The notes beneath the pieces were generated by a model, which was not told the origin of the DNA, did no database searches, and saw only the letters and a program-made list of their open reading frames with translations. Positions 2,743-18,069 of a stretch of 20,547 bases of DNA are shown here, one piece after another; positions within the stretch are counted from its first letter, which is position 1, and every line of letters begins with the position of its first letter. Position numbers and translations under genes: made by a program. Source of the DNA: a virus; IMG/VR virus record IMGVR_UViG_3300012178_000489, positions 1 through 20,547 of that record. The stretch is one strand, 5' to 3'.

Positions 2743-4179
2743 TTATTCAACGGTTGTTCTTGCGACAGAAAACATGTCTTCATAAGCAATATCTACAATA
2801 ACATTATTACTTGTATCAACAATACCATATAAACCGTCTTTTCTTACCACTGCATATCCATCAATAAATGTTGTCATGAAATCATATTCAAAATCAATCG
2901 CCACATTTCCTGTGGAAACATCAACGGCACCATATAAATTCTCATCATTCTTCAAAACAACCAAACCATTAGAAATGGTCGTTGCGTAGAGTTGGTCAGA
3001 AGCACCTTTATATAAATAATCCATGACCATGTTACCTGATAAGTCATAAATGGCGCAATACCCATTTTCATTTCTTGTCAGTACATAACCATCATTCACA
3101 TCAACTGGCTGGTCTTCTTCAAATTCAATGACAAGATTACCTTGTTCATCAATCACCTGATATTTAGGTAAATCATACTCAGTTCCTATCATCCTTAAGG
3201 CTGTTCTGCCTATGGCATAACCATTTTTAAATAAAACTGGTTGGATGCCATCAAACATATGATAAACTTCAATGAAGTCTGTATCTAAAACAATGTCGCC
3301 TTGAGGATTAATAAAGGCATACCTATCTTTGAAAGAACCATCTTCTACTGAACCTGTTTGAATTCTAACTGCAGCTAAACCATTTGAAAACGATGTACAA
3401 TCATTGTAATCACCATCTAAAGCAATATCGCCGTTTTCATCAAGGTAAACACATTTATCAATATTAGGATTGGTGACATTATAAGTATACGCTGGTACTA
3501 ATCCATCTGAAAAGTGAAATCTAGCTCTAATATGCATATCGTTTTCCTGAACCAATGGATATGTATTTTCAATTTCAAATAAACTGGTTTCTTCATGATC
3601 CATAAACTTAAGAATTGAATCCCCCATATGAACTTTTGTGATTCTATCACTGGTGAATTGAAGATTACCCATAGTGCCAAAAAGTGACCCTGTATACCAA
3701 TTTGAAAATTCATTACCAATCGTATTTATAAAACCTGCTCTACCTTCTTTGACAACTAAAGCATAACCATATCTAAAAGGTTCTACACTATCATACTTAG
3801 CCTCAATAATCACTTCTCCAGTTGGTAACATAAAGCCGTATTTTCCGTCATCTTTAAAGGCTATATAATTTTCTTTTCCTAGTTCATACACGCTAAACCT
3901 TGCGTAGATATCTGTATTTTCATTAATAGTTAGATCAAAATCATATAATTCTTCATAGGCATCTGACTTATACCAACCTAAAAACTGATAATCTCCATTA
4001 CTTGGATCATTTATCTTTTCAACAGTATCACCGTGTTTGACTTCAACCACAATATTATCAAGAGAATCTCCCATAACAAAATTAACATCATAGGTTGTAT
4101 TTGTGTCACTACAGGCTGATAGAAATACAAGGAATAAGATAGTTATTGATAAATATAATATCTTCTTAATTTTAATCAT
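2743..4179 (-). CDS. Lipoprotein with InlB-type repeat and WG (KWG-like) repeats
   Basis: The N-terminus MIKIKKILYL... leads into lipobox LSAC (Cys23), so the protein is lipid-anchored outside the membrane. Residues about 30-95 form one Listeria-Bacteroides/InlB B-type repeat, with the FLGWY centre and the IYARF end. From about residue 100 to the C-terminus there are WG-type beta repeats with cores such as KYGFM, RAGFI, LYGAV and LYGIV, each followed by a 'G.v.i...YD' strand. Such repeats are found in bacterial surface proteins and are thought to bind protein or carbohydrate; no enzyme is implied. AAGGAAGGA sits just before ATG 4179, and the gene starts 15 bases after the stop of the secreted protein upstream, so the two are probably co-transcribed. 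Confidence 0.8.
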   Translation of the reverse strand: MIKIKKILYLSITILFLVFLSACSDTNTTYDVNFVMGDSLDNIVVEVKHGDTVEKINDPSNGDYQFLGWYKSDAYEELYDFDLTINENTDIYARFSVYELGKENYIAFKDDGKYGFMLPTGEVIIEAKYDSVEPFRYGYALVVKEGRAGFINTIGNEFSNWYTGSLFGTMGNLQFTSDRITKVHMGDSILKFMDHEETSLFEIENTYPLVQENDMHIRARFHFSDGLVPAYTYNVTNPNIDKCVYLDENGDIALDGDYNDCTSFSNGLAAVRIQTGSVEDGSFKDRYAFINPQGDIVLDTDFIEVYHMFDGIQPVLFKNGYAIGRTALRMIGTEYDLPKYQVIDEQGNLVIEFEEDQPVDVNDGYVLTRNENGYCAIYDLSGNMVMDYLYKGASDQLYATTISNGLVVLKNDENLYGAVDVSTGNVAIDFEYDFMTTFIDGYAVVRKDGLYGIVDTSNNVIVDIAYEDMFSVARTTVE

Positions 4180-12864: not shown

Positions 12865-13695
12865 TTATATACCCAAGTAGCCTTCAATAACTGTTAGCTT
12901 ACAAATTGATTCAGTAGCGACACCTGGTTTAAACTCAACTTCAAAATCCCCATGATCTAAAAAGATAAAGTTATCTACTTCAAAGTCTTGTTGGCTGTAT
13001 ATATCCGTTTTGATACCTGATTCGTCCATAATCATTTCTTGTTTGCTTGGCATGGCATTAATAATTATTGTAGCGTTTTCTGCTGTTACATATAATCTTA
13101 GAAGAGATACAGTTTCACCATTCTTTTTAATATGAACTTCAGGATTAATAACATTACCTATAATTTCAATTAAAATAGGTGCCTTGTCTAAACCTTCATT
13201 TTTTATAAAAGCCTTACCCTCATATGAACTTGAATAAAAATATGGATAGGTGTAAGAATAGACCTTTCCACTTGAACTTCCATTCGCAATAATCTCATAA
13301 GTCTTCTCTTTTAACCATAGGGATAACTTCTTAAAAATGATATTGCTTTGAATGGTTCCAGCTATGAGTTCTGCTTTTGAGAGGCTTGCGATATCAACAT
13401 AACAATAAGCCTTAAAGGCTTGATTTTCATAGTAGAGTTTATATGACTTATAAGACTTACTAATATAATCAACAAAATGCTTATAACCTTGGTATCCTTT
13501 TAAAAAGACGAGGGTTTCTGTGATTTCAGTTAATGGGATATTATAATCTGATTTTTGATAAAACTGACTATACTCTAAGTATTTTAAATCCAAAGAAAAA
13601 CCAAGACCACTCACTTGGGAGATAATGGTCTGGTTTTTATGATTAAAATAATAGATATCACCGTATTCATTTTCTAAGTAAAATTGTCTAATCAA
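12865..13695 (-). CDS. Distal tail protein (Dit)
   Basis: A 276-aa protein. An N-terminal beta domain, FYLENEYGDIYYFN..., and 'GLGFSLDLKYLEY' resemble Dit/phage tail component proteins, and it sits in the canonical place between the tape measure and Tal genes. The C-terminal half (KAPILIEIIGNVINPEVHI) has the galectin-like strands typical of the family. It joins the tail tube to the baseplate. The start is TTG 13695, overlapping the tape-measure stop (TTGA), with AGGAGG nine bases upstream and no better codon nearby. Confidence 0.8.
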   Translation of the reverse strand: MIRQFYLENEYGDIYYFNHKNQTIISQVSGLGFSLDLKYLEYSQFYQKSDYNIPLTEITETLVFLKGYQGYKHFVDYISKSYKSYKLYYENQAFKAYCYVDIASLSKAELIAGTIQSNIIFKKLSLWLKEKTYEIIANGSSSGKVYSYTYPYFYSSSYEGKAFIKNEGLDKAPILIEIIGNVINPEVHIKKNGETVSLLRLYVTAENATIIINAMPSKQEMIMDESGIKTDIYSQQDFEVDNFIFLDHGDFEVEFKPGVATESICKLTVIEGYLGI

Positions 13696-15701
13696 ATGAC
13701 ATTACCTCCTAATGCTTGATTGATAGAATCAATATCAAAGGTTGGTGATGTTGTATTGATGGTGATGTTGTTTGTATTTGAGTTTGCTGTGTTTGAGTTT
13801 GAGTTATTGACTGTACTTGATCCTTTTAGATTAAATGTATCCGAGAAAAACCCGCCTACCTTACCAAAGAAGCCACCAACTTTATCGGCAGCATTACCTG
13901 CAAAATCACTAATACCATCAGTAACCTTGTTTGCAATATTAGATATACCTTCAGTAACATTCCCGAACACATCTTTGACCTTGCCACCAAAGTCACCTAT
14001 CTTAGAAGGTAAGTCTCCAATCCACTCAAATATTTTTTGGATAAATTCTACTATCTTTTGAACGACTTTTAAAACTGGTTCAAGTACGGTCTTTAAAACA
14101 TTGATTGCTGGAACTAATACAGCGTTTAAAACTTCTCCTATAACTGTAATCAGTGGTGCAAGTAATCCTAATATCTCAGCAAACATCTGAATCTGAGTCA
14201 TCAAAGGCATTAAGATGACTTCAAGTATTGGCATAAGTAAATCAAGTAGCATAATGATTAAATCAATAATGACATCTAAGATAGGTTGTAAGGCTGTCAT
14301 TAAAGAATCAACTATGGCAAGAATCGGTGGAAGCAACTGCATAAAGGTTTCCATGAGTCTTCCAAGCAACTCTTTAAACTCTTCACTTTGAAACAAGGCC
14401 ATTGCTAATATAGCAATCAATGCGCCTATACCTAAAGTAGCAGCGTTTATTCCAACACCTGCAAATATACCTGAAGTTCCGACACCTTTTAATGCAATGG
14501 ATGCAATGTTTAAAAGCGGACCGACTTTACCAACGATAGATAGAACAGGTCCTAAAGCTGCAACAACGCCTGTTAAAGTTACAATCATTTTCTTAGTGCC
14601 AGCGTCCATATTTTTCCACTTATCAATCCAGTCTTTTAATGTTGGAATGATATTGTCTCTAACCTTTATAGTGAGTTCTTGAATCACTGGTAGAAGTGTA
14701 CTTGCTAAGTCAACACCTAAACTAGAGACGGCTTGTTTCGTTCTATCGAGTGCATCAGTAAACTCACCTGCTTGAGCGGCTTGTTCATTGGTAACAATAC
14801 CTAATTCCTTAGCTTCATTTCTTAAATCATAAATAGTAGCTGTTTCTTGAGTTAGAACAGGAATAATATCAGCTGCAACTCTTTCACTTAATAAATCGTT
14901 GGCCACACCAACTCTAATGGCTTCATCTTCTACTTCACTTAAAGCATCTCTTATAAGCGCAAATGCTTGATCTGCATTCTTGCCTTCTAGATCATCTAAG
15001 CTTAATCCAATCAAGGCTAAACTATCAGCGTATTTATCTCCATTACCTGTCGCAATCTCACCTAATAGTCCATTGACTTTCATAAAGGCTCGTTGCATTC
15101 TTTCTGTAGAGACACCTAGAATAGTCGCTGAGTGATTCCACTCTTGCATTTGTTCTGCAGATAAACCTAATTTTTCAGCAGTGTCTCCTATTTCATCAGA
15201 TGCATAGGCACTCTTAATTGAAAAGGCTGTTAAAGCAGAAACGGCTCCTAAGATAGGAACCGTTACAGATTTTGTTAATGTTGAACCAAGTTTACCAATT
15301 TTCTCAAAGTTAGCATTGCTTAGTTCTTTTATTTTATTGCCTGTTTTTTCTAGTTGCCCATTGAACTTTGCCAGTGAAGCCTCTGTGTATTGGACATTTC
15401 GCTTGAGTTTGTTAAACTCTTCTTGACTCATATCACCTAATTGAACAGCTTTTTTAGCACGGTCAAGTTCTTGATTTTGAGTGCTTAGTTTTTTCTTTGT
15501 TTGAACTAAGATATCATTTAATTTACCTTGTTTTTGTTTCCATAGATCTAAATTTGTACTATCATATCTAAGGTTGGTATTAATAGCTCTAAGGTCTTTA
15601 TTTTGTTCTTTAAGGTCTTTCTTGATGCCTTTTAATTCATTTTCCAAATCCTTGCCATCAAGACTTAGTTTGATATTTAATCCTTTGACTGTTTCTGCCA
15701 T
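13692..15701 (-). CDS. Tail tape measure protein
   Basis: A 669-aa protein. Residues about 10-130 form a long charged coiled coil. The TP901-type core follows at about 140-350 (SVTVPILGAVSALTAFSIKS, then ASDEIGDTAEKLGLSAEQMQ). A strongly hydrophobic stretch occupies about 370-560. After that come Gly/Phe-rich repeats (IGDFGGKVKDVFGN) and an Asn/Ser/Thr tail. It sets tail length and helps DNA passage through the membrane; at roughly 0.15 nm per residue it predicts a tail near 100 nm. It has a GGAGG ribosome site but no visible promoter: an intrinsic terminator lies just 22 bases upstream of its start, so its transcription depends on read-through. Confidence 0.93.
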   Translation of the reverse strand: MAETVKGLNIKLSLDGKDLENELKGIKKDLKEQNKDLRAINTNLRYDSTNLDLWKQKQGKLNDILVQTKKKLSTQNQELDRAKKAVQLGDMSQEEFNKLKRNVQYTEASLAKFNGQLEKTGNKIKELSNANFEKIGKLGSTLTKSVTVPILGAVSALTAFSIKSAYASDEIGDTAEKLGLSAEQMQEWNHSATILGVSTERMQRAFMKVNGLLGEIATGNGDKYADSLALIGLSLDDLEGKNADQAFALIRDALSEVEDEAIRVGVANDLLSERVAADIIPVLTQETATIYDLRNEAKELGIVTNEQAAQAGEFTDALDRTKQAVSSLGVDLASTLLPVIQELTIKVRDNIIPTLKDWIDKWKNMDAGTKKMIVTLTGVVAALGPVLSIVGKVGPLLNIASIALKGVGTSGIFAGVGINAATLGIGALIAILAMALFQSEEFKELLGRLMETFMQLLPPILAIVDSLMTALQPILDVIIDLIIMLLDLLMPILEVILMPLMTQIQMFAEILGLLAPLITVIGEVLNAVLVPAINVLKTVLEPVLKVVQKIVEFIQKIFEWIGDLPSKIGDFGGKVKDVFGNVTEGISNIANKVTDGISDFAGNAADKVGGFFGKVGGFFSDTFNLKGSSTVNNSNSNTANSNTNNITINTTSPTFDIDSINQALGGNVI

Positions 15702-15722
15702 TAATGTTCACCTCCAGTGTAT

Positions 15723-15748
15723 AAAAAAAACACATCAAAGGATGTGTT
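15723..15748 (-). terminator. Intrinsic terminator of the tail-operon cargo cassette
   Basis: AACACATC (15748-15741 on the minus strand) pairs perfectly with GATGTGTT (15736-15729) around CTTT and is followed by eight T (15730-15723). The first stem base overlaps the stop codon TAA (15750-15748) of the membrane-protein gene. It lies directly in front of the tape measure ribosome site. Confidence 0.85.
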
Positions 15749-16104
15749 TAATCTATTTTTTTAAAAGCCCTATAATATAGTACTGAAATCAACAGCATTA
15801 ATAATAGCCAACTAATGATTACTAAGAAATCTGTACCAAAGCTCCATGATTCACCATAGTTAGGGCTATTCAACCATTCTAAAGTCATATTAATACTATA
15901 CCATTGAAAACCCAAAATTAAACCAGTAAAAACTCCTATGATAATACTACTAATCTTTTTATCAAATCCGCCCATAACAAATAGTATCAACAGATACGTG
16001 CTAAAGATTACAGAAGTTATAACTGAATAATAACTAAGCCCGAAAATAACATATATTAAAATTATCATGAGTGGTAAAGCAAATATACTAATTTTTCTTA
16101 TCAT
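15748..16104 (-). CDS. Four-helix membrane protein, cargo gene in the tail operon
   Basis: A 118-aa protein that is nearly all membrane: hydrophobic helices at about 5-22, 25-43, 51-68 and 90-111, with short polar loops and a charged YRAFKKID end. I do not recognise a family. It follows the secreted cargo protein by nine bases with its own GGGG ribosome site and ends inside the terminator stem, so the two form one unit. No tail function is expected for such a protein. Small prophage membrane proteins often block superinfection, or it may help export or anchor its partner; both are guesses. Confidence 0.65.
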   Translation of the reverse strand: MIRKISIFALPLMIILIYVIFGLSYYSVITSVIFSTYLLILFVMGGFDKKISSIIIGVFTGLILGFQWYSINMTLEWLNSPNYGESWSFGTDFLVIISWLLLMLLISVLYYRAFKKID

Positions 16105-16113
16105 AAATATCCC

Positions 16114-17457
16114 CTAGTAATAATATGGAGCGCTGCTCATTGCACATATATAATTATAAAACAACCTTGCAGCATATTCTCTATATTCATATGGAACTAA
16201 ACTAGACCCATATCCTCCAGTTCTCAAAAGAGAAAAACCTGCATAGAAATTACCACTATAATAACTATGATTAGAGTATGTTCCATCTGAATATTTGACA
16301 TTTAATGACATAAAAACTTCATCTCTAAATCTATTATACTGTGAAGTTGAAGTCGACTTTGAATTAATTTGTGCAGATTCTTTGAATATTTTATATCTGT
16401 TAGGATACTGTGAATTATCTCCACTGGTTACATTATAATATGCTGACAATGAATTACTCAAGGTATTTTCCTCTATATCAAGAAAAATCTTTGCAATATT
16501 CATTGCATCAATGTCTGCTAACATATCTTCTTCAGGAAACGTACAACTTGAAACCCCAACCCATTCACAAAAATCAATATTTGAATTCGTATAACCATAA
16601 GAAACATCAATACTTAAGGATAGTTCTGATACATCAATATTCTCAGTATATAACTTCTTAGTAAATGTATGCAGGTCTCCAAGCCATCCCGCAAGATCTT
16701 GTTGATGTTGATTTCCTAAGTCAATTGTATTTCCTGTACTTTGATACGCACCATCTATTGAAGCAAAGAGATGTGTTACATCAATTCCTGTACTATTTAC
16801 ACCATTAAATGGATCGACCAATAGATATCCTCTAGATTTATATGTTGTTGACACATAACCATATTCATCATTATAATCAGAAGCATTTTGTAAAAATTGA
16901 GCGAAATATTCATTAAATTCTATTCCAGTTCCATCAACTTGCTCTACATAGTCTACGAATCCCATATTTGTTGTGCCTGCAGTGATTCCCCAGGTTTCAT
17001 ACATAGAGGAATTATCAGAATAATTTTCATTTATACTTCGTAAATAACCTAAAACACAGTTTTCAATGTTAGAACACCCATAGTTTTCAGCAAGTTCTTC
17101 TAATTCTGTTACCATATAAATAAGAGTATCAACATCATTAAAGAGTTGTCTTTGTTCTACAATAGTGTCTACAAACTTGTCTTCATAAAAGTAATACTTG
17201 TCCATCCATGGAATCCTTATGCCTAAAAAATTATAATGTTTATAATGATAGACATTCTTTCCAGTTGATTCTATGAGTCCAACTTGATCTTCATCAATAT
17301 ATATTCTAACTCTAGTCATCACTTGTTCTGTTACGGTATATGTTCCCATGTCTTCGAGCATTTCCAACTCATTTGCGCCCGCACTAATTTTTGATGTACT
17401 AACATTAACAACTATAACCATAATCATAAATAATACAAAACAAACTAATTTTTTCAT
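16114..17457 (-). CDS. Secreted cargo protein of unknown function in the tail operon
   Basis: A 447-aa protein with a signal peptide (MKKLVCFVLFMIMVIVVNVS) and no lipobox at the usual place, so it is secreted or N-terminally anchored. The centre holds GIDVTHLFASIDGAY followed by LAGWLGDLHTF, a conserved-looking Asp/His-rich pair of motifs that I have the impression of seeing in other Firmicutes exported proteins but cannot name. Two Cys pairs (SNIENC region and CEWVGVSSC) may form disulfides. The C-terminus is Tyr-rich. ATG 17457 is chosen for the AGAGG site six bases upstream; the in-frame TTG 17475 would add six residues and overlap that site. It has its own promoter, so it is probably expressed in the lysogen. 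Confidence 0.65.
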   Translation of the reverse strand: MKKLVCFVLFMIMVIVVNVSTSKISAGANELEMLEDMGTYTVTEQVMTRVRIYIDEDQVGLIESTGKNVYHYKHYNFLGIRIPWMDKYYFYEDKFVDTIVEQRQLFNDVDTLIYMVTELEELAENYGCSNIENCVLGYLRSINENYSDNSSMYETWGITAGTTNMGFVDYVEQVDGTGIEFNEYFAQFLQNASDYNDEYGYVSTTYKSRGYLLVDPFNGVNSTGIDVTHLFASIDGAYQSTGNTIDLGNQHQQDLAGWLGDLHTFTKKLYTENIDVSELSLSIDVSYGYTNSNIDFCEWVGVSSCTFPEEDMLADIDAMNIAKIFLDIEENTLSNSLSAYYNVTSGDNSQYPNRYKIFKESAQINSKSTSTSQYNRFRDEVFMSLNVKYSDGTYSNHSYYSGNFYAGFSLLRTGGYGSSLVPYEYREYAARLFYNYICAMSSAPYYY

Positions 17458-17482
17458 CTTCTGCCTCTCTTTCAACTTTTGT

Positions 17483-17493
17483 TAAGTATATCA
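17483..17493 (-). promoter_or_regulatory. Extended -10 promoter of the tail-operon cargo cassette
   Basis: The minus strand reads TGATATACTTA, with TATACT at 17490-17485 and the TG of an extended -10. A weak -35, TTACTC, lies 17 bases upstream. It is 28 bases before the ATG at 17457. The same 11 bases occur before the HEPN/MNT cassette. Confidence 0.55.
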
Positions 17494-17528
17494 CAAATAA
17501 TTAGATTGAGTAATAACCTTTGAAGAAA

Positions 17529-17774
17529 TCATAAGAAAAATTTATCTATATCTTTCTGGTTTCCTCTTTTAATCGATCCTTTTCCACTTATAACATTAGT
17601 CTCTAACTTAACAATCTCAAAATATGTATTTATATCAAAGTTCTTTGTATCTTCTATTGATAAGCCTAAATGAGCTAGATTGAAGATGATGTTAGCCGAT
17701 ATATTGGAATCATCATTTACCTTTTGTGTATTGCTTGGAGGGTGATCCTTTCTGAAAGGTTCCGAGCATTTCAC
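17529..17774 (-). CDS. Tail assembly chaperone, frameshift extension (gpT-type part of gpGT)
   Basis: This open frame overlaps the end of the chaperone gene and continues 184 bases past its stop. It has no good start or ribosome site of its own (the first candidate is a GTG), so it is best read as an extension reached by frameshifting. From CCA 17738 it adds 69 residues (PSNTQKV...FNLAHLGLSIEDTKNFDI...), where NLAHLGLSIED recalls the 'L...Gf..~di' helix of gpT-like parts. With the first 110 codons of the upstream gene the fusion would be about 179 aa. In siphophages the fusion bridges tail tube protein and tape measure during assembly. The frame relation requires +1 (or -2), not the lambda-type -1. 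Confidence 0.7.
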   Translation of the reverse strand: MKCSEPFRKDHPPSNTQKVNDDSNISANIIFNLAHLGLSIEDTKNFDINTYFEIVKLETNVISGKGSIKRGNQKDIDKFFL

Positions 17775-18069
17775 CTATGGTATTTGTTAAATTTTCTAAT
17801 TCATTTTGATTACTTAAAATAGAAAAGTCTAAAGACATTAAAAAGTCATTATATGATTGCTTATTAAAAGGTCTTTGTAAAATATAAATGATACGAAAAA
17901 TCGTATCAATGGCAGTTGATAAATCAGCTTCTTTTTTTATATTGGTTTTTTCAAGTTTCTTTATATCACTAAACAATTCAGTTGAGAACACGCTACGATA
18001 ATCAATGATTGTAAATAGTGATGAATGTAGGCGATAGTCCTTATCACCTAATTTAAGTGTTTTTTCCAT
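17713..18069 (-). CDS. Tail assembly chaperone (gpG-type)
   Basis: A 118-aa helical protein directly after the major tail protein. It starts EKTLKLGDKDYRLHSSLFTI and has the 'd.r..f..~l' helix typical of Firmicutes gp13/gpG-like chaperones. It is overlapped at its 3' end by a second frame, the hallmark of the chaperone pair. It coats the tape measure protein before tube polymerisation. Normally the tape measure gene follows at once; here a two-gene cargo cassette lies in between. Confidence 0.8.
   Translation of the reverse strand: MEKTLKLGDKDYRLHSSLFTIIDYRSVFSTELFSDIKKLEKTNIKKEADLSTAIDTIFRIIYILQRPFNKQSYNDFLMSLDFSILSNQNELENLTNTIGEMLGTFQKGSPSKQYTKGK
17736..17745 (-). other. Predicted +1 ribosomal frameshift site CCC-T
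   Basis: The chaperone frame reads TCA CCC TCC AAG. A +1 slip of the Pro tRNA from CCC (17742-17740) to CCT leads directly to CCA AGC AAT in the extension frame. CCC is a rare codon in such AT-rich DNA, and CCC-U stretches are known +1 slip sites; the Listeria phage PSA is a described case of +1 frameshifting in structural genes. No lambda-type A/G heptamer is visible in the overlap. The position is inferred from sequence only. Confidence 0.55.

What the first reader, a model, noticed from the sequence alone, without database searches (positions are those of the whole stretch)
15723..17493. Cargo cassette with its own promoter and terminator between tail chaperone and tape measure genes
The chaperone and tape measure genes are almost always adjacent in siphophages. 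Here a promoter (17483-17493), a secreted 447-aa protein, a 4-TM protein and a strong intrinsic terminator (15723-15748) are inserted exactly between them. This is the structure of a moron, but in an unusual place. Secretion plus a membrane partner suggests lysogenic conversion, superinfection exclusion or a secreted effector.
Basis: partly seen in the sequence, partly recalled or inferred. Interest (0 to 1): 0.8.

Follow-up and report, generated by a model that had tools for sequence, protein, structure and literature searches.

The report
Phage-borne secreted toxin cassette
Between two tail genes, this virus of wall-less bacteria carries a swappable two-gene cassette that most likely encodes a secreted antibacterial enzyme related to the TelC toxin and a membrane protein that protects the carrier; related viruses carry other cargo, or nothing, at the same spot.

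Summary
A 1,827-nt insert (15702-17528) separates the tail chaperone from the tape measure gene. It has an extended -10 promoter, a 447-aa protein with a signal sequence, a 4-TM protein and a strong terminator. In 101 related junctions from phages of Acholeplasmatales, 42 hold only 11-33 nt. The other 59 hold about 24 unrelated cargo families, usually with an extended -10 at the start and a near-identical terminator hairpin at the end. The two neighbouring tail junctions never vary (95 of 95 each). So this is a moron-exchange site, and the window's sister phages are empty there.

The secreted protein is not an orphan. Relatives occur in two other phages (upstream of terminase) and in Bacilli chromosomes. 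More distant relatives are C-terminal domains of peptidoglycan hydrolases. A family profile finds one solved structure, TelC (5ukh, E 1.4e-5), and the H, GD, D...D(+6), R signature is conserved. I read the pair as a Sec-secreted TelC-family lipid-pyrophosphate phosphatase toxin plus a membrane immunity protein. Hosts of the group lack MraY (10/10), hence lipid II, but 9/10 have UppS, so undecaprenyl-PP is the likely shared substrate. Activity and immunity are inferred, not shown. Structure prediction failed.

The parts
17713..18069 (-). tail chaperone, first frame (upstream flank of the site)
   Evidence: phrog_709 E 2e-11; conserved in all relatives
17529..17774 (-). tail chaperone, second, overlapping frame; its stop marks the start of the insert
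   Evidence: homologs in all 101 junction loci
17485..17493 (-). extended -10 promoter element TGATATACT of the cassette
   Evidence: sequence; extended -10 elements enriched at this place in relatives' cassettes
16114..17457 (-). 447-aa secreted protein, TelC-family (lipocone) phosphatase toxin candidate; D226, H229, W258, GDL 260-262, D311, D315, D317, R354 conserved
   Evidence: homologs
15748..16104 (-). 118-aa 4-TM membrane protein, immunity candidate
   Evidence: four hydrophobic segments; a multi-TM gene follows the homologs in L113, L114 and G007
15728..15749 (-). intrinsic terminator of the site, shared by unrelated cassettes
13692..15701 (-). tape measure protein (downstream flank of the site)
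   Evidence: phrog_58 E 2e-38

Best explanation
A moron cassette in a recurrent cargo-exchange site of a siphophage of wall-less Acholeplasmatales. Shown: the site is empty, or holds unrelated cargo, in relatives; cargo lies between a promoter-like element and a shared terminator; the secreted protein belongs to a family that matches TelC and keeps its signature residues; a small multi-TM protein gene follows it in three different genomic settings. Inferred: in the lysogen the cassette is transcribed from its own promoter, the first protein leaves by the Sec pathway and cleaves undecaprenyl pyrophosphate (and lipid II where a target has it) on the outer membrane face of neighbouring bacteria, and the 4-TM protein protects the producer and its sister cells. 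Also inferred: late transcription must pass the terminator (antitermination or readthrough), because it lies on the late strand upstream of the tape measure gene.
For: Site: 42 of 101 junctions empty, 59 filled, about 24 cargo families; neighbouring junctions invariant in 95 of 95; at least 23 occupied/empty and 38 cargo changes on the tape measure tree, nearest relatives empty; shared terminator and promoter enrichment. Toxin: profile of 11 family members finds only TelC in the PDB, E 1.4e-5; D311/D317 spacing of six and R354 match the TelC-clade signature; family domain also fused to peptidoglycan hydrolases. Pair: same order toxin then multi-TM gene at the tail site, upstream of terminase (L113, L114) and in a chromosome. 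Substrate: hosts lack MraY 10/10, have UppS 9/10; TelC also hydrolyses undecaprenyl pyrophosphate (PMC5555719).
Against: The profile of only the three closest sequences does not reach TelC, so membership rests on intermediate sequences; the match covers the C-terminal half. AlphaFold gave no usable model (pLDDT 31-32). The membrane partner has no recognised immunity fold, and in other genomes the partner is a lipoprotein or single-TM protein instead. No transcript, toxicity or enzyme data. The host of the window itself is not known directly.
Confidence: 0.62

Rival explanations
1. Superinfection exclusion: the secreted protein and its membrane partner alter the envelope, for example polyprenyl-linked lipoglycan, so that related phages cannot adsorb or inject.
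For: Membrane and secreted morons often act this way (for example HK97 gp15, cited in PMC10884400); several cargo genes at this site look defence-like or membrane-bound.
Against: TelC-type enzymes are known as antibacterial toxins; homologs sit in chromosomes and as domains of peptidoglycan hydrolases, away from phages.
Confidence: 0.13
2. Lysogenic conversion without toxicity: the enzyme trims the producer's own polyprenyl-linked surface polymers or recycles the lipid carrier, a fitness or surface trait rather than a weapon.
For: Hosts have UppS but no MraY, so a carrier-lipid substrate exists without a wall; other cargo at the site looks metabolic (CorA, ABC exporter, amidohydrolase).
Against: The paired, fast-diverging membrane partner (28-32% identity) and fusions to peptidoglycan hydrolases fit antagonism better.
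Confidence: 0.17
3. The two proteins are parts of the tail or its assembly that happen to be present in this phage.
For: They lie inside the tail operon on the same strand.
Against: Absent from the other 100 junctions, including phages with 92-93% identical tape measure proteins; homologs lie outside tail modules and in chromosomes.
Confidence: 0.02

Closest known systems
TelC of Streptococcus intermedius (lipid II phosphatase, PDB 5ukh) and the prok-TelC family of the lipocone superfamily
   Same: Signature residues and motif order (D/H, GD, ED...DxD, R); action expected outside the cytoplasm
   Different: Sec signal peptide instead of an LXG domain and type VII secretion; no full structural check; phage-borne
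TelC-Rv2525c/PG-binding fusion proteins of Bacillota and plasmids
   Same: Same C-terminal domain; such fusions are described in PMC12419801
   Different: The window protein has no wall-binding or hydrolase domain
Two-gene secreted lipocone toxin-immunity systems (PMC12419801)
   Same: Stand-alone secreted lipocone plus a small, fast-evolving partner; multi-TM proteins occur there as immunity candidates
   Different: The simple two-gene form was described for CapCone-2 and Min-Wnt; the passages I read do not mention a stand-alone secreted TelC on a phage
TelC-TipC pair
   Same: Membrane-located partner encoded next to the toxin
   Different: TipC has one TM segment and an extracellular beta-rich domain; the window partner is almost all TM
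Phage morons and prophage cargo hotspots (HK97 gp15; Tab between the terminase genes of JBD26)
   Same: Extra genes with their own control elements between late genes
   Different: Here a single slot between chaperone and tape measure, with a shared site terminator and about 24 cargo families

Membership tests
Phage moron | Inserted between adjacent phage genes, absent from relatives | tested here: met
   42 of 101 sites empty; nearest relatives L002 and L007 empty
Phage moron | Own promoter and terminator | tested here: met
   by sequence only: terminator z -5.06, extended -10 element with group enrichment; no transcript data
Phage moron | Base composition unlike the phage | tested here: inconclusive
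   G+C 0.304 against 0.326-0.36 for tail genes: small difference
Phage moron | Found in more than one kind of phage | tested here: met
   homologous pair at another site in L113 and L114
prok-TelC (lipocone) | Sequence similarity to TelC | tested here: met
   family profile, 5ukh E 1.4e-5, only PDB hit; the three closest sequences alone do not reach it
prok-TelC (lipocone) | Asp six residues after the active-site Asp, and a conserved Arg in the C-terminal extension | tested here: met
   D311, D317, R354; rule from PMC12419801
prok-TelC (lipocone) | Lipocone fold with Ca2+ site | tested here: inconclusive
   AlphaFold pLDDT 31-32
prok-TelC (lipocone) | Phosphatase activity on lipid II or undecaprenyl pyrophosphate | not testable with these tools
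   needs purified protein
T7SS LXG effector (TelC proper) | N-terminal LXG domain | tested here: not met
   signal-like segment instead; no Pfam match
TipC immunity protein | One N-terminal TM segment and a soluble extracellular domain | tested here: not met
   four hydrophobic segments fill the 118 aa

The most novel reading that the evidence does not exclude
Temperate phages of wall-less bacteria trade weapon and defence cassettes through one fixed slot in the tail operon; in this phage the slot delivers a Sec-secreted TelC-type enzyme with a multi-TM immunity protein that attacks the shared undecaprenyl-pyrophosphate carrier rather than lipid II, giving lysogens a contact-free weapon.
Probability: 0.35. 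Interest if true: 0.78.

Novelty: new variant of a known kind. Interest (0 to 1): 0.62.

Why it matters
It turns an orphan two-gene insert into a testable toxin-immunity pair and shows that a fixed slot in the tail operon of a whole phage group is used to carry and swap cargo. Such a slot is a systematic source of new lysogen traits (toxins, defence, transporters) in a poorly studied host group. If the enzyme matters in bacteria that have no wall, TelC-type toxins have a broader target than lipid II.

Tried and rejected
Essential tail part: rejected by the empty sites. Searches with the window protein alone against Pfam, PHROGs, NCBIfam, PADLOC, PDB and annotated phages gave nothing useful, nor did the first IMG/VR scan; only searches from the wider family worked. 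A weak phmmer hit to armadillo-repeat designs (E 0.013) was discarded. Structure prediction failed twice, so no fold search was run. A TelC fragment found no plasmid or phage relatives. The hhalign scores of that fragment are not independent evidence, since the fragment came from the hit. Rfam found nothing at its thresholds in ten sources searched. DNA-pattern scans for further UGA-peptide cassettes brought up only unrelated new contigs.

Full report
Observation. The window is an IMG/VR virus record of 20,547 bases. On the minus strand it holds a siphophage tail operon: major tail protein, chaperone in two overlapping frames, tape measure, Dit and further tail genes. Between the chaperone stop (17529) and the tape measure start (15701) lie 1,827 nt with a 447-aa protein that has an N-terminal hydrophobic segment, a 118-aa protein with four hydrophobic segments and a strong terminator (z -5.06).

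The site. A scan with the tape measure protein and then with its alignment gave IMG/VR loci and 16 genome loci, whose record titles are Tenericutes, Acholeplasmataceae, Acholeplasma and unclassified Bacillota/Bacilli, including Tenericutes bacterium MO-XQ, chromosome and plasmid. At 101 complete chaperone-tape measure junctions, 42 have 11-33 nt and 59 have 237-2642 nt. The adjacent junctions do not vary: major tail protein to chaperone 7-15 nt and tape measure to Dit -4 nt, 95 of 95 each. The inserts fall into about 24 families (25 DNA clusters, two of which, L047 and L079, encode related proteins). On a tape measure tree of 94 rows at least 23 occupied/empty changes and 38 cargo changes are needed; the window's nearest relatives (L007, L002) are empty, and the next clade holds one empty site and one other cargo. 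The tree is a quick one with 22 weak forks, so these counts are approximate.

Shared ends. Most cassettes start with an extended -10 in about the first 50 nt after the chaperone stop; 20 of 36 representatives are at p 0.05 or better against shuffles (the combined p treats related sequences as independent). Of 47 distinct cassette ends, 43 have a hairpin plus T-run by a simple test, mostly (A/G)CACATC-loop-GATGTGTTTTT shortly before the tape measure ribosome site. A strict form of the pattern is found once per locus in 21 loci; where the junction is known it lies at the junction. The terminator thus belongs to the site rather than to the cargo, which suggests exchange by recombination in the flanks (inference). 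Because it lies on the late strand, late transcription must read through or be antiterminated (inference).

Other cargo. By Pfam: CorA (L038), CopZ/BFD-like iron-sulfur protein and an ABC/UPF0014 transporter (L025, L045), amidohydrolase (L081), DUF6946 (L050, L059), RelB-like (L018), List_Bact_rpt lipoprotein (L061), weak ParB-like (L011), DUF1232 (L086). Several are unassigned. PADLOC gave only two weak partial hits.

The secreted protein. Alone it matches nothing curated. Homologs: L113 (44% identity) and L114 (42% over the aligned part), both IMG/VR contigs, both upstream of a terminase small subunit (phrog_309 in L113; L114 by similarity) and both followed by a 163-164-aa multi-TM protein. 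L114 is on the same contig as L033, whose tape measure junction carries a different cargo. In host genome G007 the gene is split in two frames and is followed by a 145-aa 4-TM protein. The membrane partners are only 28-32% identical to the window's. Wider Bacilli genomes carry the protein followed by lipoproteins or single-TM proteins, twice next to a radical SAM gene. In G109 the domain is the C-terminus of an M23/amidase protein and of a PG-binding/Rv2525c-like protein. Related domains lie on some 350 plasmid records, mostly of Enterococcus and Lactiplantibacillus, many annotated as glycoside hydrolase domain proteins.

Identity. The alignment of 11 members keeps an A, R, H, GDL, D, DxD, Y, R and F in every row. 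Its profile finds one PDB chain at E 0.01 or better, 5ukh = TelC, E 1.4e-5 (PDB code in PMC5555719). In TelC the matching stretches read NADFTH, GWEGD, EDDYKADLDSVNI and a conserved arginine. TelC D401, whose change to Ala is used as the inactive control (PMC6193138), probably aligns with D226; this rests on an assumed tag length. The TelC group is described as having a second Asp six residues after the active-site Asp and an interacting Arg (PMC12419801): here D311, D317 and R354. The fold could not be checked, and the three closest sequences alone do not reach TelC.

Mechanism. TelC is a Ca2+-dependent phosphatase that cuts lipid II and undecaprenyl pyrophosphate and is toxic only outside the cytoplasm (PMC5555719). 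Hosts of this phage group and its relatives lack MraY (0 of 10) but have UppS (9 of 10), so they should make undecaprenyl pyrophosphate but not lipid II. A secreted enzyme of this kind would threaten the producer as well as walled neighbours, which gives the 4-TM partner a role as immunity protein. Multi-TM immunity candidates are reported for related lipocone toxins (PMC12419801). These steps are inferred.

Known or new. Morons and cargo hotspots in late operons are known (PMC2920897, PMC10884400). TelC domains and two-gene lipocone toxins are known (PMC12419801). I found no report of this slot or of a phage-borne stand-alone secreted TelC, within an open-access library only.

Noticed in passing
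L042:4224-4322, L040:9797-9907, L029:2640-2750, L069:9793-9903, L003:1234-1326, L031:1720-1809 (+), and identical copies in L043, L070, L076, L032, L067, L053: At the same junction, 12 loci carry 237-277-nt cassettes whose main frame is a 29-36-residue cationic, hydrophobic peptide with conserved in-frame TGA at positions that align as Trp (one is TGG in L069). Yet the phage genes use TGA as stop (0 TGA against 92 TGG in tail genes of these loci; most of their tape measure genes end in TGA), four host genomes have RF2, and a pattern search plus ARAGORN found no tRNA with a UCA anticodon. The peptide may need UGA readthrough, for example as a tripwire. L029 and L069 lack a standard start codon in this frame.
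   Followed up: partly
L009:9655-10000 and the 3' part of the insert in L028: The insert holds sequence that looks like the 3' half and then the 5' half of a tRNA in permuted order around a short reading frame. ARAGORN finds no tRNA and Rfam only a chance match.
   Followed up: partly
L034:5259-5886, L022:6624-7244: Possible type III toxin-antitoxin cargo: three imperfect repeats of about 40 nt before a 148-aa protein with a very weak match to CptN (E 0.18).
   Followed up: partly
17713-17774: The chaperone is encoded in two overlapping frames, conserved in relatives, as for a programmed frameshift of +1 (or -2) rather than the usual -1.
   Followed up: no
2743-4179: 478-aa protein with WG repeats and a Flg_new (List_Bact_rpt) domain; it and the seven other left-hand genes tested match no PHROG.
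   Followed up: no
L122:6478-7743, L125:2815-4146: In two Bacilli genomes a radical SAM gene lies beside the TelC-like gene and its lipoprotein/TM partner, hinting at a modified product in that operon.
   Followed up: no
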